DNA of 64,000 nt, taken from positions 56,712,255 through 56,776,254 of the forward strand of contig OZ024933.1 in assembly GCA_964017235.1 (NCBI GenBank), written 5' to 3'. The translations under genes were made by a program, and so were the position numbers. Positions 37,150-44,617 of the stretch are shown here, in pieces (the stretch's first letter is position 1; the number at the start of each line of letters is the position of its first letter). Under the pieces are notes generated by a model, which saw only the letters and a program-made list of their open reading frames with translations, made no database searches and was not told where the DNA came from. This DNA is from Sabellastarte sp. h YS-2021 (Eukaryota; Annelida; Polychaeta; Sabellida; Sabellidae).

Positions 37150-37809
37150 CTACAAAATGATTACTGACAACAGATACTTGATTGGTCCTGTTTCATCCTG
37201 TTGCCAAAAGGTGTGACTGTGCTCACAGTAGTAAAAGTAATGCTCAATATTATCAATGGTCTGACACAGGTCGCATTGTGGTGATTCTTTTATATTCCAT
37301 TTTGCTAAATTATAGTTACAGTTTGTAACTCTATGCAAAATTTTATATTGTAGGGCAACAACAAAAGAATCTTTGACAATTTTTGAGGGTAAAGAGTAAA
37401 TCTTTTTCCAGTCAACCAAGTCTAAGAAGGGATAATACTCTATCCATTTATATTCACTAGTTGGAACAATTTGCTGAGATTCAATCAAATGGTTATATAC
37501 TTTTTTTAAATTAATCTTGCCAATGTTTTCAATACATAAGTTTGGAATGTTTAGAAGCAGGTTGACATTTGATTGTTTAGGCAACAAGTTTATCTTAGAC
37601 TTCATGCAGCTAACTAGCTTATTGTATCTCAGTAGGTCCAGGGAAACCCCAAATTTGGTTTCAATACTCTGTTTACTCAGGAATAACCCATCTTCATTAA
37701 CTATGTCCTGAACTTTGTTTACACCAACAACAGCCAAGTCATTGTATTCAGTAGTTATAGCCTTTTTTCCAATAAGTATAAGATCATTATAGAATAGTGG
37801 CTCAAGCAA
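37150..37809 (-). pseudogene. LINE ORF2 carboxy-terminal region with zinc motif
   Basis: This 219-residue frame matches the end of L1-type ORF2. DWKKIYSLPSKIVKDSF, then LQYKILHRVTNCNYNLAKW, then the zinc-binding series C-D-L-C, I-E-H-Y-F-Y-Y-C and H-S-H-T-F-W (about residues 180-206) resemble the zf-RVT element, thought to bind template RNA. The true protein would continue past the frame's stop, possibly in the adjacent frame (36830-37069). A 112-bp tandem duplication at its start separates it from the preceding piece. Confidence 0.8.
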
Positions 37810-37947
37810 AAATTTGGTTTTGGTTCAATTGTAATTAAACAACAGCCAAGTCATTGTATTCAGTAGTTATAGCCTTTTTTCCAATAAGTATAAGATCATT
37901 ATAGAATAGTGGCTCAAGCAAAAATTTGGTTTTGGTTCAATTGTAAT
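37726..37947. repeat. 112-bp tandem duplication inside LINE ORF2
   Basis: Two copies of one segment starting AACAACAGCCAAGTCATTGT lie at 37726-37835 and 37838-37947 with essentially no difference. The period is not a multiple of three, so the duplication breaks the ORF2 frame. The identity shows it arose after the LINE inserted, or very recently. Confidence 0.95.
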
Positions 37948-38460
37948 GAAATTATACCACGCAGATATGAGGCTACAGTAAAAAGAAGTTTTTGGTTTTG
38001 ACTTAAAACTTTTGTAGAAGCGCTTTTTGAGCAACTTTTCTTTGTCGAAATTCGACAGTGATTCCAGTAAAACCTTCCATTTAGCTTTAACAGGATCACA
38101 GTATCTTTTAATCCATATAACTTTCATTGCTGTAACAGTATCTAAAACAGATACCATCTTTAAACCCCCTCTTTCTATTGGTTGGAGGAGAGTGCTTTTG
38201 GAAACGAGATGTTTTCTATTGCTCCAGATAAAATTGAACAACAATCTATCTAGATCTGCTAAATATTTATCAGACAGAGGCACAACAGAAGCTAATGATA
38301 GAATATGTGGGACAACTAGACTTTTCACAATAGTAATTTTACCTTTCAAGGTTAGCGAACGTGGTTGCCATGAAAACAAAATATTTTTTATACTATCATG
38401 CTTTTCCTTAATATTTAAAGCAATTATTTCATCAGAATTAAGGGAAAACCATGTTCCCAA
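37867..38460 (-). pseudogene. LINE ORF2 segment after the RT core (thumb region)
   Basis: The frame contains LGTWFSLNSDEI at its beginning, then LTLKGKITIVKSLVVPHIL and FIWSNRKHLVSKSTLLQPIERGGL in separate blocks, all characteristic of the region after RT in L1/Tx1-type ORF2. Upstream, coding continues in another frame (LKLNKNKTEAM) between 38589 and 38500; the break lies at an A9 run near 38500. The carboxy end is cut by the 112-bp duplication. Confidence 0.8.
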
Positions 38461-38588
38461 GGTTTTAAATGGTCTATTTATCCAGCTTATTCCTATTTTT
38501 TTTTGTCTTCATATAGTGATCCGTCATTATATACTATCATAGCTTCTGTCTTATTTTTGTTCAGTTTAAGGCCTGCATATCGATCAAA

Positions 38589-39266
38589 TTATTCAAATGT
38601 CTGTATAGCTGACCTCACTGACCTGCTATCTTTTAAGAATAGCGTCATATCATCCGCTAACTGGCACAGCTTGATGCATGTATTATTTATGGTTATTCCT
38701 TTAACAACAGTCAAAGAACGCAATATAGTAGCAATAACCTCTGCTGGCAATAAAAATAATAGGGCACTAATAGGACAACCTTGTCGGATGCCTCTAGAGA
38801 GCTTAAAGTATGTGCATTGGTGGCCATTATTTGAGACACAGCTCTCAGTATCGCAGTACAGAATGGATATCCATCGTTGGAAGTTCACATCAAAACCATA
38901 ATGTTTCAAACAAATATTAAGGAAATTCCAATTTATGGTGTCAAAAGCCTTTTCAAAATCAACAAGAAGGATAATGCAGGGATGTTGATTTAGGTTATAA
39001 AATTCAATCATGTCGCCAATCAGTCTAGTGTTTTCACCACAAAATCTATTTTCCATATAACCTATTTGATCGGGATTTATAATTTCTTTCAAAGCTGTGT
39101 TCAATCTATTTGATAGTAATTTAGCCAAAATTTTGTAGTCTGCATTTAGAATTGACAATGGGCGCCAAGATTTCAAATCTGTTAGGTCTTTACCTTTCTT
39201 GGGTATCAAACAAAGGACACCTTGAGGTTGACTTAGTATCAACTTGCCTGATTCAAAGGCTTCCAA
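38589..39266 (-). pseudogene. LINE ORF2 reverse transcriptase core
   Basis: The RT domain synthesises cDNA at the nicked target. Visible in order: LIPKKGKDLTDLKSWRPLSI, LLVDFEKAFDTINW (first catalytic Asp), SRGIRQGCPISALLF, and QLADDMTLFL (the two active-site Asp; Leu replaces the usual aromatic residue before ADD). The frame ends at a TAA after QTFE, and the next codons read FDRYAGLKLNKN in the same frame, so this is a point nonsense mutation. Upstream, NKTPGPDGFPAEFYK is in a different frame near 39340-39300, after an A-rich run. Confidence 0.88.
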
Positions 39267-39351
39267 GTAGGTTTGAAAAACAATATCTGATATATCAATC
39301 CAACATATCTTGTAAAACTCAGCCGGAAAGCCATCAGGGCCAGGTGTTTTA

Positions 39352-39837
39352 TTATTTTTTCAATTCTAGGATTGCTTTTTTAACTTCCTCTAAACAAATT
39401 GGACGATCAAAAATTTCTTTTGATGTTTTGGAAATTTGAGGGAGGTTGCAGCTAAATAAATACTCATCAATACATTCATTAGAGACATTGTTAGGAGGAC
39501 ATGTATATAATTTAGAGTAGAATTCCTTCTGTGCTGAAAGGATTTCATCAGGCTTCTTCATGATCTTGTCTACGATAATTAAAGAACGAATGTGCTTTTT
39601 ATTGCTATTTGCCTTTTCAAGATTAAGGAAAAACTTTGTCGGTTTTTCATACTTCTCTGTAAATTTGGACCTTGTCCTTATGATGCAACCTCTTGCACAT
39701 TCGTTATAAATATTTTCAATTTTAGATTTTGTCCGATTTATTTCGTCAAGATAATCCAAAGTAGGTTGGGTACTTACCAACTCCTCTAATTCTGCCAACC
39801 TGTTTGACAGAGTTTTTAGTAAATCATTTGAACACAT
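39352..39837 (-). pseudogene. LINE ORF2 segment between endonuclease and RT
   Basis: The 161-residue frame covers the helical linker of L1-type ORF2: RGCIIRTRSKFTEKYEKPTK, FFLNLEKANSNKKHI, then ILSAQKEFYSKLY and EEVKKAILELKK. The motif 'R.r.k..e.GEk.tkyFlnLEk' is typical just before RT. It shifts frame at both ends: near 39880 against the endonuclease and at the A-run near 39355 against RT. Confidence 0.82.
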
Positions 39838-39841
39838 GTTT

Positions 39842-40765
39842 TTACGTATAGCAACGGTGATAGACTCTGTTTTGGATTCTGCATTTAATAAAATCCCAGA
39901 CTAAATTTTTATTTTGAAGATTTTGAGCATCTAATTTTGCTATGTTAATAGTATCTTTTATCACATTAATGTATTCATTATCTAGAAGAAGACCTGTGTT
40001 TAATTTCCAAAGACCCCTTCTACGCTTATTCTCAACTTCAATGTCGAAAATTAGAAGAAGTAAACTATGGTCTGATTTTATATTAGGAACAATATCTGTT
40101 TTGCACAGATGGTATTGCAAATGAGACAAGATAAGAAAATAATCAATTCTTGATTGGGAAAAACCAAAGCTGGTCTGTTCTCGTCTGGTAAATCTAGTTA
40201 TATTTGCATTCTTAAGTCGCCAAATGTCCATTAAATCTAATGTTTCACACATTTGCGAAAGAGAATCACCATAGGATGGGGTGCCAGTTGAGTTTGAATT
40301 TTTCAAATTATACAGACATATGTTAAGATCACCCCCTAAGATGATATTATCACCTACAAAATTTGACATTTGGTCATTAAGAAAACATCCAAAGTCAATC
40401 TGCTGAGACCTTTTATCAGATGTAGGGGCATATAGGTTTACTATTGTCAATGGGTAGGTGCCATAGTTGCACTGCAATAGGAGGAATCTACCATCGTTAT
40501 CACGAAATACCGAGCTAATATCAATCGGTACGTTTTTTGTTATAAGGATTGCCACACCTCTACAGTTAGAATTGCCATGTGAAAATTCAATTCTACCATC
40601 CCAATCCTGCTGCCATATTTGTTCTGAGTTAGCGGTTGAATGGCATTCTTGAAGTAAATAGACTCCAGAACCTTTAGATTTCAGCCACAGAAAGACTGCC
40701 ATACGTTTTTTGCGATCACCAAGACCACGGGCATTAAAATTAAATAAATTTAGAGTGTTACTCAT
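39842..40765 (-). pseudogene. LINE ORF2 APE-type endonuclease domain
   Basis: This 307-residue frame starts with MSNTLNLFNFNARGL, a normal ORF2 start. Catalytic landmarks of the APE/exonuclease III fold are all present: N11 (NFNARGL), E40 (LLQECHS), NLYAPTSDKRS, D146 and N148 (GGDLNICL), D208 (SRIDYFL) and S-D-H at 231-233. It would nick target DNA to start reverse transcription. The domain itself looks intact; the frame is lost just past it near 39880. Confidence in identity is high, in activity low because ORF2 is broken downstream. Confidence 0.9.
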
Positions 40766-41676
40766 GGATGTTAAAGTAAAAGTTTAAGTGCTCATCGCTT
40801 TGGTCAAATAACATTTGTAAAAAAGTACACACTGTACCACAATATACCAGAAAAGAAAAACATGCCAACTTGCATAAAAAAGGGGGAAAAAAAGAAAAAT
40901 GAAACAAAACAACATACAACAAAGCAAGCATACAAAACACATAACATAGTCATATACAAAAGGAGTGTGCAAGAAATACAGATAGTAAATAAAGAAAATC
41001 AACAGCTGGGCTTGACAAGCATCAGATGATGCAAATATCTTCATTTAATCAATATTTTAACTGACCAGTGTATATACTTTTCAACAAATTGGAAATAAAA
41101 GTTATCAGCTCAAATATTTGGTTTAGTTGTTCTTTAGCTTTAAACCAGCTTAAGTGCACAATATTTTAACAACAAATGATACAAACCCCAAACAAACCCC
41201 ATCCCCCCAGACTTGCCTACAGTATATGCTTTAGGAAAATTAGGAAAATAACAATAGCTAACTGGAGTGTAATTTCTTGTTTTCTACAATGCAACTGTAT
41301 GTGGTATCATGCTATCCTTATAAAAGGATTCTTGTTTTAACTAAATAGATTTGAAAACTATCAATCTTTTACTGGAATATACCGTAATAAAGGATATTAA
41401 TATGATACAGAAATATTTGCATACTTTAAAACAGTTTTAATGTGAATAGCATATACTTTTAATCTCTTACAAAAGTGTTCAACGCTTCACAATAATAAAA
41501 TGTAGGTATGTACTGGTACTTAATATAAGGATATAGTACTTTCATTATACAAACAGTCTTATGCCAAAAACTATTTGCAGGCATAAAAGCTATCCCAACA
41601 TAGTAGATGTATCTGTTATCTAAACAGGATGCCACTGCAAAGAAACATGTCAGATACTGAAAGTTAAGTTTTGAGT
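40766..41676 (-). other. LINE inter-ORF region
   Basis: About 910 bases separate the end of the ORF1 reading (41677) from the ORF2 start (40765). The minus strand here is T-rich, producing a very hydrophobic spurious frame at 40784-41044. I see no domain in it. It may be a genuine long inter-ORF spacer or hold a small insertion. Confidence 0.5.
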
Positions 41677-41856
41677 TTATTTAAGCATGTCTCTCACCTT
41701 CATCAAGGCCATACCCAATTGGTTTTTACCTTTCCAGTCATCTTGATTCCACAGCCCCTTGTCGTAAAGAGAGAGCCCAACACCAAACAATCTGTCATGA
41801 GGATTGGCTTCTGCTAAAAGAGTTTGTCCTGTGGCCTTCAGGAAGCAGAGCAGCTC
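41677..41856 (-). pseudogene. Carboxy-terminal third of the NADAR domain, shifted frame
   Basis: Starting at the last base of the CAG codon (41856), the minus strand reads ELLCFLKATGQTLLAEANP, then HDRLFGVGLSLYDKG, DDWKGKNQLGMALM and KVRDMLK before TAA at 41679-41677. This is the usual end of NADAR proteins ('L..TG...L.EA.P.D..wG.Gl', 'W.G.N.LG..LM.vR..L'). Restoring frame needs one missing base, so the LINE's ancestor had one continuous ORF1. No slippery sequence is present at the joint. Confidence 0.85.
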
Positions 41857-42974
41857 TGTAAGAATTTCGCTGTGAGACCAGTGATAAGGATTGCCTCAAT
41901 TTCTGATTCCCAGACGTCCTGTTTAAAGTTTTTCACTTCCTTCCCCCATTGCTTAATCAGAACTGGATTGTCTTCCTTCTGAATTTCATACAGGTTTTCT
42001 TGATCATTGAAGACTCGAGCCTTTTCACAAATTAAGAACTGCTCCATGCTGGTATAGGTGACATCGCGAACATTAAAGGTACACTTGAAATGGTTGAACA
42101 GCTTGCTGTGGGATCTAAAAAAGCCTGTTATGCCATTCCTTGATACATTGAATAGGTTATCTAGTGTGAATGGTTGTGGCAACCTGCAAATGTGCTTTAC
42201 ACCATAAGACTTGGCATTGAGTATCAGTTTGTCCCCTCTCAGCTTCAGGCTCTGAATCGCGGCTTGGTCATTATGTTTCTTTAAGTCACGCAAGGCTGCA
42301 AATATAGGGTAAAGAGCTCGATTGTCAGAGTCCATCTGTTGAGACATGTCATCAGTAAGAATGATGTTATACTTTTTCTTCGGGGCTTCTCTGGCTTGCA
42401 GAGCAGTGATCTTGTCTTTATAATGTGCAAACCTAACCATAACCATTCTGTCACCATACTTCTTAAATTTCCCAAGTCTGTGTATCCTCTCGAATGTCCT
42501 TGGCCCAAATCTGTTTTCAGGATGCAGGAACTCATTAAAAAGTCCAGTAACACGTACTTCCAGATTCTCACCACTTGATTCTTTCAGTTTTATTATTCTG
42601 AGATTGTTTTTGCGCTGATAGCTTTCTACCTTCTCAATTTGTTGCTTTAGTGCTATATTTTCTGTTTCCAGGTCATTTATTTTTTGTTGTAGGCTTGTTG
42701 TTGTCTTCTCATGATTACTTTTTAAAATTTTTATATCCATTTTGACATCTGCTAATTCTGCTTGTAGAGGTGACATGTATGTTTCAAACTTTTCTTCTAA
42801 AAGGTCAGACAGTATAGAACGCCATTCTTTTTTGTCTATCACGGTGTGTGTTTCTGGAGAGAAAGACATCTCTGTATTAAGTCTCTTGCTAGCAGGAGTT
42901 GACATTATAATATATCTGGATGTGCCATATGTTGGCAAACCAGAAAATCCAATGTAACAGTTAATCTCTGTCAC
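41838..42974 (-). CDS. LINE ORF1: coiled coil, RRM-like, CTD, then NADAR domain
   Basis: 378 residues from the first Met; the more likely start is the Met at residue 24 (42905, MSTPASKR). Residues about 66-118 form a coiled coil (EENTIAL-like heptads), for trimerisation. Residues 119-195 are the RRM-like core of L1/Tx1 ORF1 proteins (YQRKNNLRI, FERIHRLGKF, MVMVRFAHYKDK). Residues 196-258 match the CTD (IILTDDMSQ, LRGDKLILNAKSYG). From about 280 the protein turns into a NADAR (YbiA-like) domain: GFFRSHSKLFNHF, YTSMEQFLICEKARVFND, NPVLIKQWGKEVKNF, VWESEIEAIL, GLTAKFL. The frame then breaks at 41856 and the domain's last third continues in the overlapping frame. The first part should bind RNA; NADAR domains handle ADP-ribose-linked substrates. 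Fusion is direct, with no stop between parts. Confidence 0.87.
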   Translation of the reverse strand: MTEINCYIGFSGLPTYGTSRYIIMSTPASKRLNTEMSFSPETHTVIDKKEWRSILSDLLEEKFETYMSPLQAELADVKMDIKILKSNHEKTTTSLQQKINDLETENIALKQQIEKVESYQRKNNLRIIKLKESSGENLEVRVTGLFNEFLHPENRFGPRTFERIHRLGKFKKYGDRMVMVRFAHYKDKITALQAREAPKKKYNIILTDDMSQQMDSDNRALYPIFAALRDLKKHNDQAAIQSLKLRGDKLILNAKSYGVKHICRLPQPFTLDNLFNVSRNGITGFFRSHSKLFNHFKCTFNVRDVTYTSMEQFLICEKARVFNDQENLYEIQKEDNPVLIKQWGKEVKNFKQDVWESEIEAILITGLTAKFLQSCSAS

Positions 42975-43310
42975 AGTATATTATTAACACAACTGTATCC
43001 TAACTGTTTGATAAAGTCTTCAAAAGAGTTTCTAGAACAAAATATTTATCCCTTTAATACCGCTAAGGGTACCAACTTTAAAGGCTTAATGCCTATAACT
43101 GTGAATTCCACCGTCTAGTTTGAACAACATTTTGAACACAAAATGGGGCAACCTGGGAGGTGGTTCAACCACTGAGGAACACCTTTAGCCCAGGATGTAC
43201 CTCGTGTAGTGTGAAAGGGACATAAAAAACCTTTCAATACAAATTTAATTACATTAGAGACTTTTAACATGTTACACTTTTTAATAAACTGTCATCGTAA
43301 AGGATTTAGC
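42975..43310. other. Possible LINE 5' UTR and unassigned repeat
   Basis: No frame recognised. It contains CTTTAATACCGCTAAGGGTA and GCCCAGGATGTACCTCGTG, which I cannot assign. The LINE's 5' UTR should lie here on the minus strand but its end is not visible. Confidence 0.35.
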
Positions 43311-43465: not shown

Positions 43466-44047
43466 TTAGGGTGGGTATGCTTTTCCAAAGAGGTATGACT
43501 TCAACTTTGACCTGAAAGAGGAAAGTGAGTTTGCAGAGCGGACCTCATCAGGAAGGTCATTCCAAATCATAGGTGCATCATACGCAAAACTGAGTCCAAA
43601 ATGTTTTCGAGACTTGAAAACTGAAGCAAAGTGGGGAGCCTCAAGAAATATGCCATCAGATTGACTTCGACGTGTGTTATATGCACTATGTCTGGGAATC
43701 AGGAAGGGTTCAAAGTATTTGGGGTTACCACTGTGTAGGAACTTATATACCAGCATGGCAGTCTTAAAGATAGAACGGTACTTAATCGGCAACCAATGTA
43801 GTGCTTTTCTAACTGGAGTGATGTGTGAGTACTTGGTGGTGTTGGCAACAATTCTGGCAAGGCTATTCTGAACACACTGAAGTTTGCGCAGATCTAGAAT
43901 TGAGAGACCTCTGAACAGAGAGTTACAGTAATCAAGTCGACTTCCGACCAGAGCATTGGCAGCCATAAGAGCCGCTTCATGTGTCAGATGTCCTCGGAGT
44001 CGCTTAAGATCCCGGACATGAGCAAAACAAGCCTTGCAGACCTTCAT
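43466..44047 (-). pseudogene. CR1/L2-like LINE pol, carboxy-terminal block
   Basis: 193 residues: NALVGSRLDYCNSLFRGL, LQCVQNSLARIVANTTKYSH, then ITPVRKALHWLPIKYRSIFK and MIWNDLPDEVRSANSLSSF. This is the long conserved post-RT block of CR1/L2-group pol proteins and ends with the normal KAYPP-type terminus. It is separated from the RT frame by a break between 44047 and 44217. Confidence 0.85.
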
Positions 44048-44216
44048 AACATGGCAAGAAAATGAGACATCTGAATCAAACCAGGTGATATAAGATTACC
44101 AAGTATGTTGACCGGGAAGGACTGATTAAGTTTTTCGCACTGAGACTTTGAGCCAAACACAATGAATTTGGTCTTATCAGGATTTAGCTTGAGCTTATTT
44201 GTACAGAGCCATCTCT

Positions 44217-44570
44217 TTACATCTTCAAGGCAGTGTGACAGCTTATCAAGGGCCGAGGCAACAGATGTACATACAATTGTGTGTCATCAGCGTAGAACTG
44301 GAAACTAATACCAGGATGATTCTGTATGACTTTACTCAGTGGAGTAGTATAGAGTGAAAAAAGGATTGGCCCCAGGACAGAGCCTTGAGGCACACCATAC
44401 AACAACTTTTTGGCATCAGATAAAATTGACCCAATCTTAATGCACTGAACACGGTCTGAGAGATAAGACTTAAACCAATCGAGGACAACCCCGCTCACAC
44501 AAAACCAGGAGCTAAGAGAATTAAGTAGCGTATCATGATCAATAGTATCAAACGCTGCAGATTGATCCAA
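44217..44570 (-). pseudogene. CR1/L2-like LINE pol, RT catalytic part
   Basis: 117 residues carry the first catalytic Asp region (MDQSAAFDTIDHDTLL), FKSYLSDRVQCI, LYGVPQGSVLGPILFSLY and the active site FQFYADDTQLYVH, with the aromatic-A-D-D intact. Upstream coding continues to at least 44610 (VVLLDQSAAF). The frame is lost after YVHLL. It is a dead, 5'-truncated copy. Confidence 0.88.
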
Positions 44571-44617
44571 GAGAACGACAGCAGTAGCCTCACCTTTAGC
44601 TACTAAAAACTACACTA

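What the first reader, a model, noticed from the sequence alone, without database searches (positions are those of the whole stretch)
41677..42974. LINE ORF1 protein fused to a NADAR (ADP-ribose-handling) domain
Seen: one minus-strand reading carries coiled coil, RRM-like and CTD blocks of an L1/Tx1 ORF1 protein, then the NADAR signature series (FFRSHSKLFNHF; TSMEQF; EKARVFND; VWESEIEAIL; TAKF) and, one frame over, TGQTLLAEANP, FGVGL, WKGKNQLGMALM. Known: NADAR/YbiA-family proteins act on N-glycosidic ADP-ribose or related riboflavin-pathway compounds, and some remove ADP-ribose from guanine in nucleic acid, reversing DarT-type modification; shellfish make guanine-specific ADP-ribosyl transferases (pierisin/CARP-1 type). 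Inference: the element carries its own eraser to protect its RNA or cDNA from ADP-ribosylation, a counter-defence role for an ORF1 protein. I know of no described LINE with this domain.
Basis: partly seen in the sequence, partly recalled or inferred. Interest (0 to 1): 0.92.

Follow-up and report, generated by a model that had tools for sequence, protein, structure and literature searches.

The report
LINE ORF1 protein with NADAR domain
A broken copy of a jumping gene carries, fused to its RNA-coating protein, an enzyme domain of a kind known to strip ADP-ribose from guanine in DNA and RNA; many unbroken relatives in the same genome keep it, so it looks like a working part of the element, possibly a shield against a host defence.

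Summary
The minus strand at 42905-41677 encodes an L1-type ORF1 protein (coiled coil, RRM, CTD) ending in a NADAR domain that one frame break splits in two. Both halves match Pfam NADAR (3.8e-14, 5.5e-14). ORF2 (EN, RT, zf-RVT) follows on the same strand. The window copy is dead, but the fusion is not a one-off: 20 of 20 loci fetched by ORF1 match carry ORF1-NADAR, 18 of 20 with EN and RT downstream. One family has six protein-identical copies. In the one usable family pair NADAR shows dN/dS 0.12, RRM-CTD 0.16. LINE NADARs lie on one branch of the NADAR tree. The catalytic glutamates are kept in 26 of 26 family representatives, the catalytic lysine in 18. Prior art: a 2025 paper notes NADAR in ORF1 of several oyster Tx1 LINEs (PMC12477816), so the fusion is known, if barely. 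Most likely it is an ADP-ribosyl-guanine (or similar N-glycoside) hydrolase tethered to the element's own RNP; this is inferred. A counter-defence role is plausible without direct evidence here.

The parts
37191..43059 (-). extent of the LINE copy by DNA homology (pieces of 94-97% identity) to copies L029, L030, L031; relatives share about 0.1 kb more 5' and about 0.5 kb more 3', so this copy is cut at both ends
   Evidence: blastn
41677..42905 (-). ORF1 from the ATG to the stop, in two frames (one frame break inside the NADAR part)
   Evidence: intact relative P0001/L029 is 411 aa
42612..42833 (-). coiled-coil helix (P0001 residues 25-98)
   Evidence: AlphaFold model secondary structure; position mapped from P0001
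42141..42611 (-). RRM and CTD of L1 ORF1p type (P0001 residues 99-255)
41853..42107 (-). NADAR domain, first part (Pfam profile 11-104); holds the E and K equivalent to E43 and K50 of the P. nicotianae NADAR
   Evidence: residues
41680..41853 (-). NADAR domain, second part in the other frame (profile 107-163); holds AEANPHD (E125 and D130 equivalents)
39842..40783 (-). ORF2 endonuclease (EEP) frame
   Evidence: PF03372 E 3.2e-07; LINE-1 ORF2p E 4e-21 in PDB
38589..39359 (-). ORF2 reverse transcriptase
   Evidence: PF00078 E 1.7e-28; LINE-1 ORF2p E 2.5e-39 in PDB
37150..37824 (-). ORF2 C-terminal zf-RVT frame
   Evidence: PF13966 E 5.1e-06

Best explanation
This is a dead copy of an L1/Tx1-group LINE whose ORF1 protein is a coiled-coil/RRM/CTD RNA-coating protein with a C-terminal NADAR hydrolase. 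The fusion is kept in many diverged LINE families of this genome (shown) and fits a single origin (inferred from the tree). Most likely mechanism (inferred): the ORF1 oligomer coats the element's RNA and places several NADAR domains on the RNP, where they cleave the N-glycosidic bond of ADP-ribose attached to guanine (or a closely related base adduct) in the element's RNA or cDNA. The template would thus stay copyable in a host that ADP-ribosylates foreign or exposed nucleic acid. Shown: fusion, order, several families, conservation, predicted fold, catalytic glutamates. Inferred: oligomer, catalysis, substrate, benefit to the element.
Against: The lysine equivalent to K50/K95, essential in a bacterial NADAR, is L, Q or I in 8 of 26 family representatives. 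W133, a pyrophosphate contact of 8bau that 9 of 9 free-standing NADARs keep, is F, Y or C in 24 of 26; R79 is K in 20 of 26. Within-family dN/dS of NADAR, from few changes and partly broken copies, is higher (0.19 to 0.66), and young-copy pairs were uninformative. L049, an RT relative, shows no NADAR in 4.7 kb upstream of ORF2. No ADP-ribosyltransferase writer was shown in the host: DarT search 0 matches. E. coli YbiA cleaves riboflavin intermediates (PMC11543638, passage), so fold alone does not fix the substrate. No expression, activity or modification data exist here.
Confidence: 0.45

Rival explanations
1. The NADAR is kept as a binding or structural module (binding ADP-ribosylated RNA, DNA or PARylated protein, or shaping the RNP), with catalysis unimportant or lost in part of the lineage.
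For: Loss of the catalytic lysine in 8 of 26 representatives and replacement of W133 in 24 of 26; ORF1p is a binding protein; purifying selection does not need catalysis.
Against: Both glutamates that coordinate the distal ribose are kept in 26 of 26, including families without the lysine; the one Q seen (L044) is copy-specific, since its family member P0010 has E.
Confidence: 0.25
2. The domain acts on small molecules or signalling ADP-ribose derivatives made by the host's immune response (quenching), not on the element's own nucleic acid.
For: PMC9503650 (passages) posits that viral NADARs, phage ones above all, may prefer soluble ADP-ribose derivatives; NCBIfam TIGR02464 (N-glycosidase of riboflavin intermediates) matches P0001 at 2.3e-33.
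Against: Tethering to an RNA-coating protein in cis would be a poor way to clear soluble molecules (inference); [quoted passage not shown]
Confidence: 0.17
3. House-cleaning of damaged riboflavin intermediates (YbiA activity) carried by accident.
For: TIGR02464 match.
Against: No reason for a LINE lineage to keep it at dN/dS 0.12 (one family pair) and in many families; the fused clade lies apart from the sampled free-standing molluscan and bacterial NADARs.
Confidence: 0.06
4. Non-functional passenger: a host NADAR fragment inserted into one LINE copy or one young family.
For: The window copy itself is broken.
Against: Open in many families, conserved, same order.
Confidence: 0.02

Closest known systems
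Crassostrea gigas Tx1 LINEs with NADAR-type ORF1 (Repbase), reported in PMC12477816 (Genome Biol 2025)
   Same: L1/Tx1-group LINE, ORF1 protein with YbiA-family NADAR domain, bivalve
   Different: In the passages read one sentence names them and points to a supplementary figure, which I did not see; those passages give no domain order, selection, copy number or tree of the LINE NADARs.
[quoted passage not shown]
   Same: NADAR captured by a retroelement
   Different: LTR element, different place in the protein; the paper suggests possible horizontal acquisition from bacteria; an independent capture is my inference, they are not in my tree
RNA-virus NADARs embedded in polyproteins (for example yellow head virus; PMC9503650)
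   Same: NADAR next to an RNA replication machine; fold hits
   Different: Viruses with RdRp, not LINEs; no ORF1p
DarT1-NADAR and YarT-YbiA toxin-antitoxin erasers (PMC11543638, PMC11125620)
   Same: NADAR fold; the glutamate in the last strand is as in the YbiA type
   Different: Free-standing antitoxins with a partner toxin; no partner gene was seen in the elements read
Human LINE-1 ORF1p
   Same: coiled coil, RRM and CTD
   Different: no NADAR domain (recalled)

Membership tests
NADAR superfamily (PF08719) | Sequence match over the curated cut-off | tested here: met
   Window pieces 53.7 and 53.2 bits against 35.1; P0001 128.4 bits; 17 of 17 relatives match at E up to 0.1
NADAR superfamily (PF08719) | YbiA fold | tested here: met
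NADAR superfamily, YbiA type | Glutamate in the last strand (E125), not Asp or His | tested here: met
   E in 26 of 26 family representatives (with P0010 standing for the family of L044, which itself has Q); AEA present in the window
NADAR superfamily | Catalytic lysine K50/K95 | tested here: inconclusive
   K in the window and in 18 of 26 representatives; L, Q or I in 8
NADAR superfamily | Hydrolysis of ADP-ribosyl-guanine | not testable with these tools
   needs enzyme assay
L1/Tx1-group LINE | ORF1p with coiled coil, RRM, CTD | tested here: met
L1/Tx1-group LINE | ORF2 with EN and RT closest to L1 | tested here: met
   Among solved structures: EN best match LINE-1 ORF2p 4e-21; RT best 8c8j 1.5e-39, then LINE-1 ORF2p 2.5e-39, against R2 at 9e-16 or weaker
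Tx1 clade proper | RT groups with Tx1 in a LINE tree; target-specific insertion in some families | not tested
   no Repbase reference set on hand

The most novel reading that the evidence does not exclude
Molluscs defend against retrotransposons by ADP-ribosylating guanine in retroelement RNA or cDNA, and this LINE lineage carries its own eraser in the RNA-coating protein, so selfish elements reveal a nucleic-acid ADP-ribosylation defence in animals.
Probability: 0.25. Interest if true: 0.88.

Novelty: new member of a known kind. Interest (0 to 1): 0.62.

Why it matters
The physiological role of eukaryotic NADARs, animal ones included, is stated as unclear in PMC11125620 (passages). A LINE that has kept a NADAR on its ORF1p through many families makes one answer directly testable: does it erase ADP-ribose from retroelement nucleic acid? 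If so, it points to an unrecognised ADP-ribose-based control of retrotransposons in molluscs. ORF1 proteins are described as RNA-binding and nucleic-acid chaperones (PMC11203168, passage), so an enzyme domain on one would widen what they do.

Tried and rejected
One-off insertion of host NADAR: rejected. The highest-scoring NADAR hits of the genome (L001-L008) as LINE copies: rejected, they are a free-standing NADAR in another repeat; L001 groups with molluscan and brachiopod NADARs, not with the LINE rows. A further conserved ORF between ORF1 and ORF2 as a partner gene: in nine loci read by eye no ORF of 110 aa or more looked like a known domain recurring between families; L034 and L039, one family, share one of unclear meaning. 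A host DarT writer: 0 matches with Pfam PF14487 (one of 14 control genomes rang). A pierisin/CARP-1-type search was asked with PF22596, a number recalled and not verified as that family, and never answered. NADAR-less close relatives: not settled. Of 148 scored RT rows (of 23752 candidates), 24 have an ORF1/NADAR hit within 12 kb upstream on the same strand; 0 hits lay downstream or on the other strand within 12 kb (without the rows); the ORF1 lists were capped, so the other 124 are open. Of two RT rows fetched blind, one has NADAR (L050) and one has none within 4.7 kb upstream of ORF2 (L049; could be truncated). P0018-like ORF1 hits near other RT rows have frames such as 422 and 526 aa, long enough for a NADAR, but their sequence could not be fetched. 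Young-copy dN/dS was too noisy to use. The other rows of the pdb_via list are mainly RRM proteins and were not used.

Full report
Observation. On the minus strand, frame 42980-41838 codes for an ORF1 protein (ATG at 42905) of which residues 292-376 of the frame hit Pfam NADAR (3.8e-14, profile 11-104); the frame 41895-41677 continues the same domain (5.5e-14, profile 107-163) after one frame break. Downstream on the same strand lie EN (40783-39842), RT (39359-38589) and zf-RVT (37824-37150) frames with further breaks. DNA homology to three other copies bounds the element at 43059-37191; relatives share about 0.1 kb more 5' and about 0.5 kb more 3'. The window copy is therefore truncated, frame-broken and dead.

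Other copies. The own genome (1.786 Gb, 647 contigs) gave 150 scored NADAR matches of 2705 candidates, each over the cut-off, and 101 scored matches to P0001, partial ones included, of 2394 candidates; these counts are lower bounds. I fetched 20 loci of 8.5 to 9 kb around hits, so they were chosen for ORF1, and some are the same family. ORF1N and NADAR are adjacent in 20 of 20, in different frames in a few broken copies. EN and RT follow on the same strand in 18 of 20; L039 shows only the start of EN before the locus ends, and L038 shows none. From L009-L048, which hold some places twice, 32 open frames qualified as full ORF1-NADAR, 23 of them distinct in DNA. Two loci were fetched by RT alone: L050 has a 428-aa ORF1-NADAR, L049 has none in 4.7 kb upstream of ORF2. 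The L050 ORF1 has six copies of 100% protein identity on six large contigs, with RT 2.7 to 2.8 kb downstream in five and 8.6 kb in the sixth, so an ORF1-NADAR family moved recently (inference). P0013, from another data source, is 76-77% identical over its length (78% over a part) to the nearest copies in this genome, so the fusion probably occurs in another species too.

Selection and history. L029 against L032 (69% protein identity): NADAR dN 0.126, dS 1.05, ratio 0.12; residues 96-255 0.16; part of 1-95 0.24. L032 against the other copies and the window gives 0.12 to 0.16 in NADAR, not independent of the first. Pairs within the window's family, with few changes and broken copies, give 0.19 to 0.66 in NADAR; the window and L014 values include frame-break tails (all). 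Very young pairs were uninformative. Across 14 families dS is saturated and median dN is lowest in NADAR (0.50 against 0.62 and 0.61). Pairwise distances correlate: ORF1N-NADAR r 0.92, NADAR-RT 0.62, ORF1N-RT 0.55 in 11 loci, those of the 20 with both an intact ORF1 and a nearly complete RT (0, 0 and 1 of 2000 permutations as high). The RT tree and the ORF1 trees differ (L034/L035 move), so some ORF1-ORF2 shuffling is likely. In a tree of 94 NADARs (22 LINE rows, L001, P0020-P0089 and P0130; one search found 187), 26 rows lie on one side of a 99/98 branch: the 22 I had labelled LINE and four unlabelled. Because of those four, the formal label count gave 5 changes and 0% of bootstrap trees with one. 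Reading them afterwards, P0020, P0021 and P0025 carry ORF1-like sequence upstream, and P0057 is a 135-aa fragment nested with L042. That fits one origin of the fusion among the sampled rows; rooting and unsampled NADARs (RNA viruses, Ectocarpus Gypsy) were not tested.

Active site. Against the 8bau ligand contacts described in PMC11543638 (passages), the 26 family representatives (85% identity clusters of 32 rows) have E43 26, K75 26, W89 26, E125 26, D130 25, an aromatic for Y84 25, K50 18, R79 as K or R 21, W133 2, R93 1. Nine free-standing or bacterial NADARs have K50, R79 and W133 9 of 9, but R93 only 2 of 9, so R93 is no special loss of the LINE set. D86 varies in both. For the L044 family the sister sequence P0010 stands in, because L044 itself has Q at E125. 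The mapping to 8bau numbers was read by me from the alignment. The window copy has E, K and D, and its AEA glutamate lies in the second frame (the S printed at 368 comes from an out-of-frame alignment tail). The catalytic core is thus largely kept, the pyrophosphate pocket is altered, and one clade of nine rows (97/88) lacks the essential lysine. That argues against one uniform activity.

Mechanism. PMC11833690 (abstract and passages) reports NADARs as the only tested hydrolase family that reverses guanosine-base ADP-ribosylation of RNA. [quoted passage not shown] A NADAR on an RNA-coating protein fits an in-cis eraser. ZAP, a PARP-family protein (recalled), restricts human retrotransposition (PMC4441479, search listing only), and the clam enzyme CARP-1 modifies guanine (PMC11543638 passages); neither shows such a defence in this host.

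Prior art. PMC12477816 (passages) states that ORF1 proteins of several C. gigas Tx1 LINEs in Repbase appear to hold YbiA-family NADAR domains and suggests processing of RNA intermediates. Among the rows listed by searches of the held library for NADAR or DUF1768 with retrotransposon, non-LTR, ORF1, YbiA and bivalve terms (the lists are cut, and NADAR is also a surname) I saw no other report. In some searches it is the only listed paper with all three terms. Most subscription papers and all bioRxiv preprints are not held. Two mollusc TE papers do not mention NADAR in their main text. Hence 'new member of a known kind'. What is added here: order, a recently active family, selection, single branch, active-site survey, and the lysine-less clade.

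Source organism: unnamed.

Noticed in passing
L001-L008 (whole loci, 3435 bases each): A second, unrelated carrier of NADAR: a free-standing ~160-aa YbiA-like ORF inside a dispersed repeat of at least 3.4 kb, two subgroups with copies up to 99.9% identical on different contigs and a ~166-bp tandem array of 2.6-6.9 units downstream. L001 groups with molluscan and brachiopod NADARs. About 38 of the 150 NADAR rows look like this by open-frame length and score; eight were fetched. Element type not determined; Helitron-like is a guess.
   Followed up: partly
L044, L045, L047, L048; P0006, P0007, P0016, P0021: A set of LINE families in which the catalytic lysine of NADAR is replaced by L, Q or I while the first glutamate stays in all and the second in all but the L044 copy: possible change of substrate or loss of activity. 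In the tree they form one clade, nine rows, 97/88.
   Followed up: partly
L029 3031-4001 and L031 2999-3929 (element orientation): About 0.95 kb extra sequence between ORF1 and ORF2 that the window copy and L030 lack: two subfamilies with different inter-ORF spacers.
   Followed up: no
37719-37958: A roughly 120-bp tandem duplication in the ORF2 C-terminal part of the window copy; the same unit is single in L029 and L031.
   Followed up: no
43466-44609: Pieces of a second LINE-like reverse transcriptase on the minus strand next to the element's 5' side, recognised by eye, no family search; a similar piece lies between ORF1 and ORF2 in L047 4318-5343.
   Followed up: no
G000:C11:82865680-82866891: One ORF1-NADAR match sits in an 867-aa open frame, perhaps a longer fusion; not fetched.
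   Followed up: no
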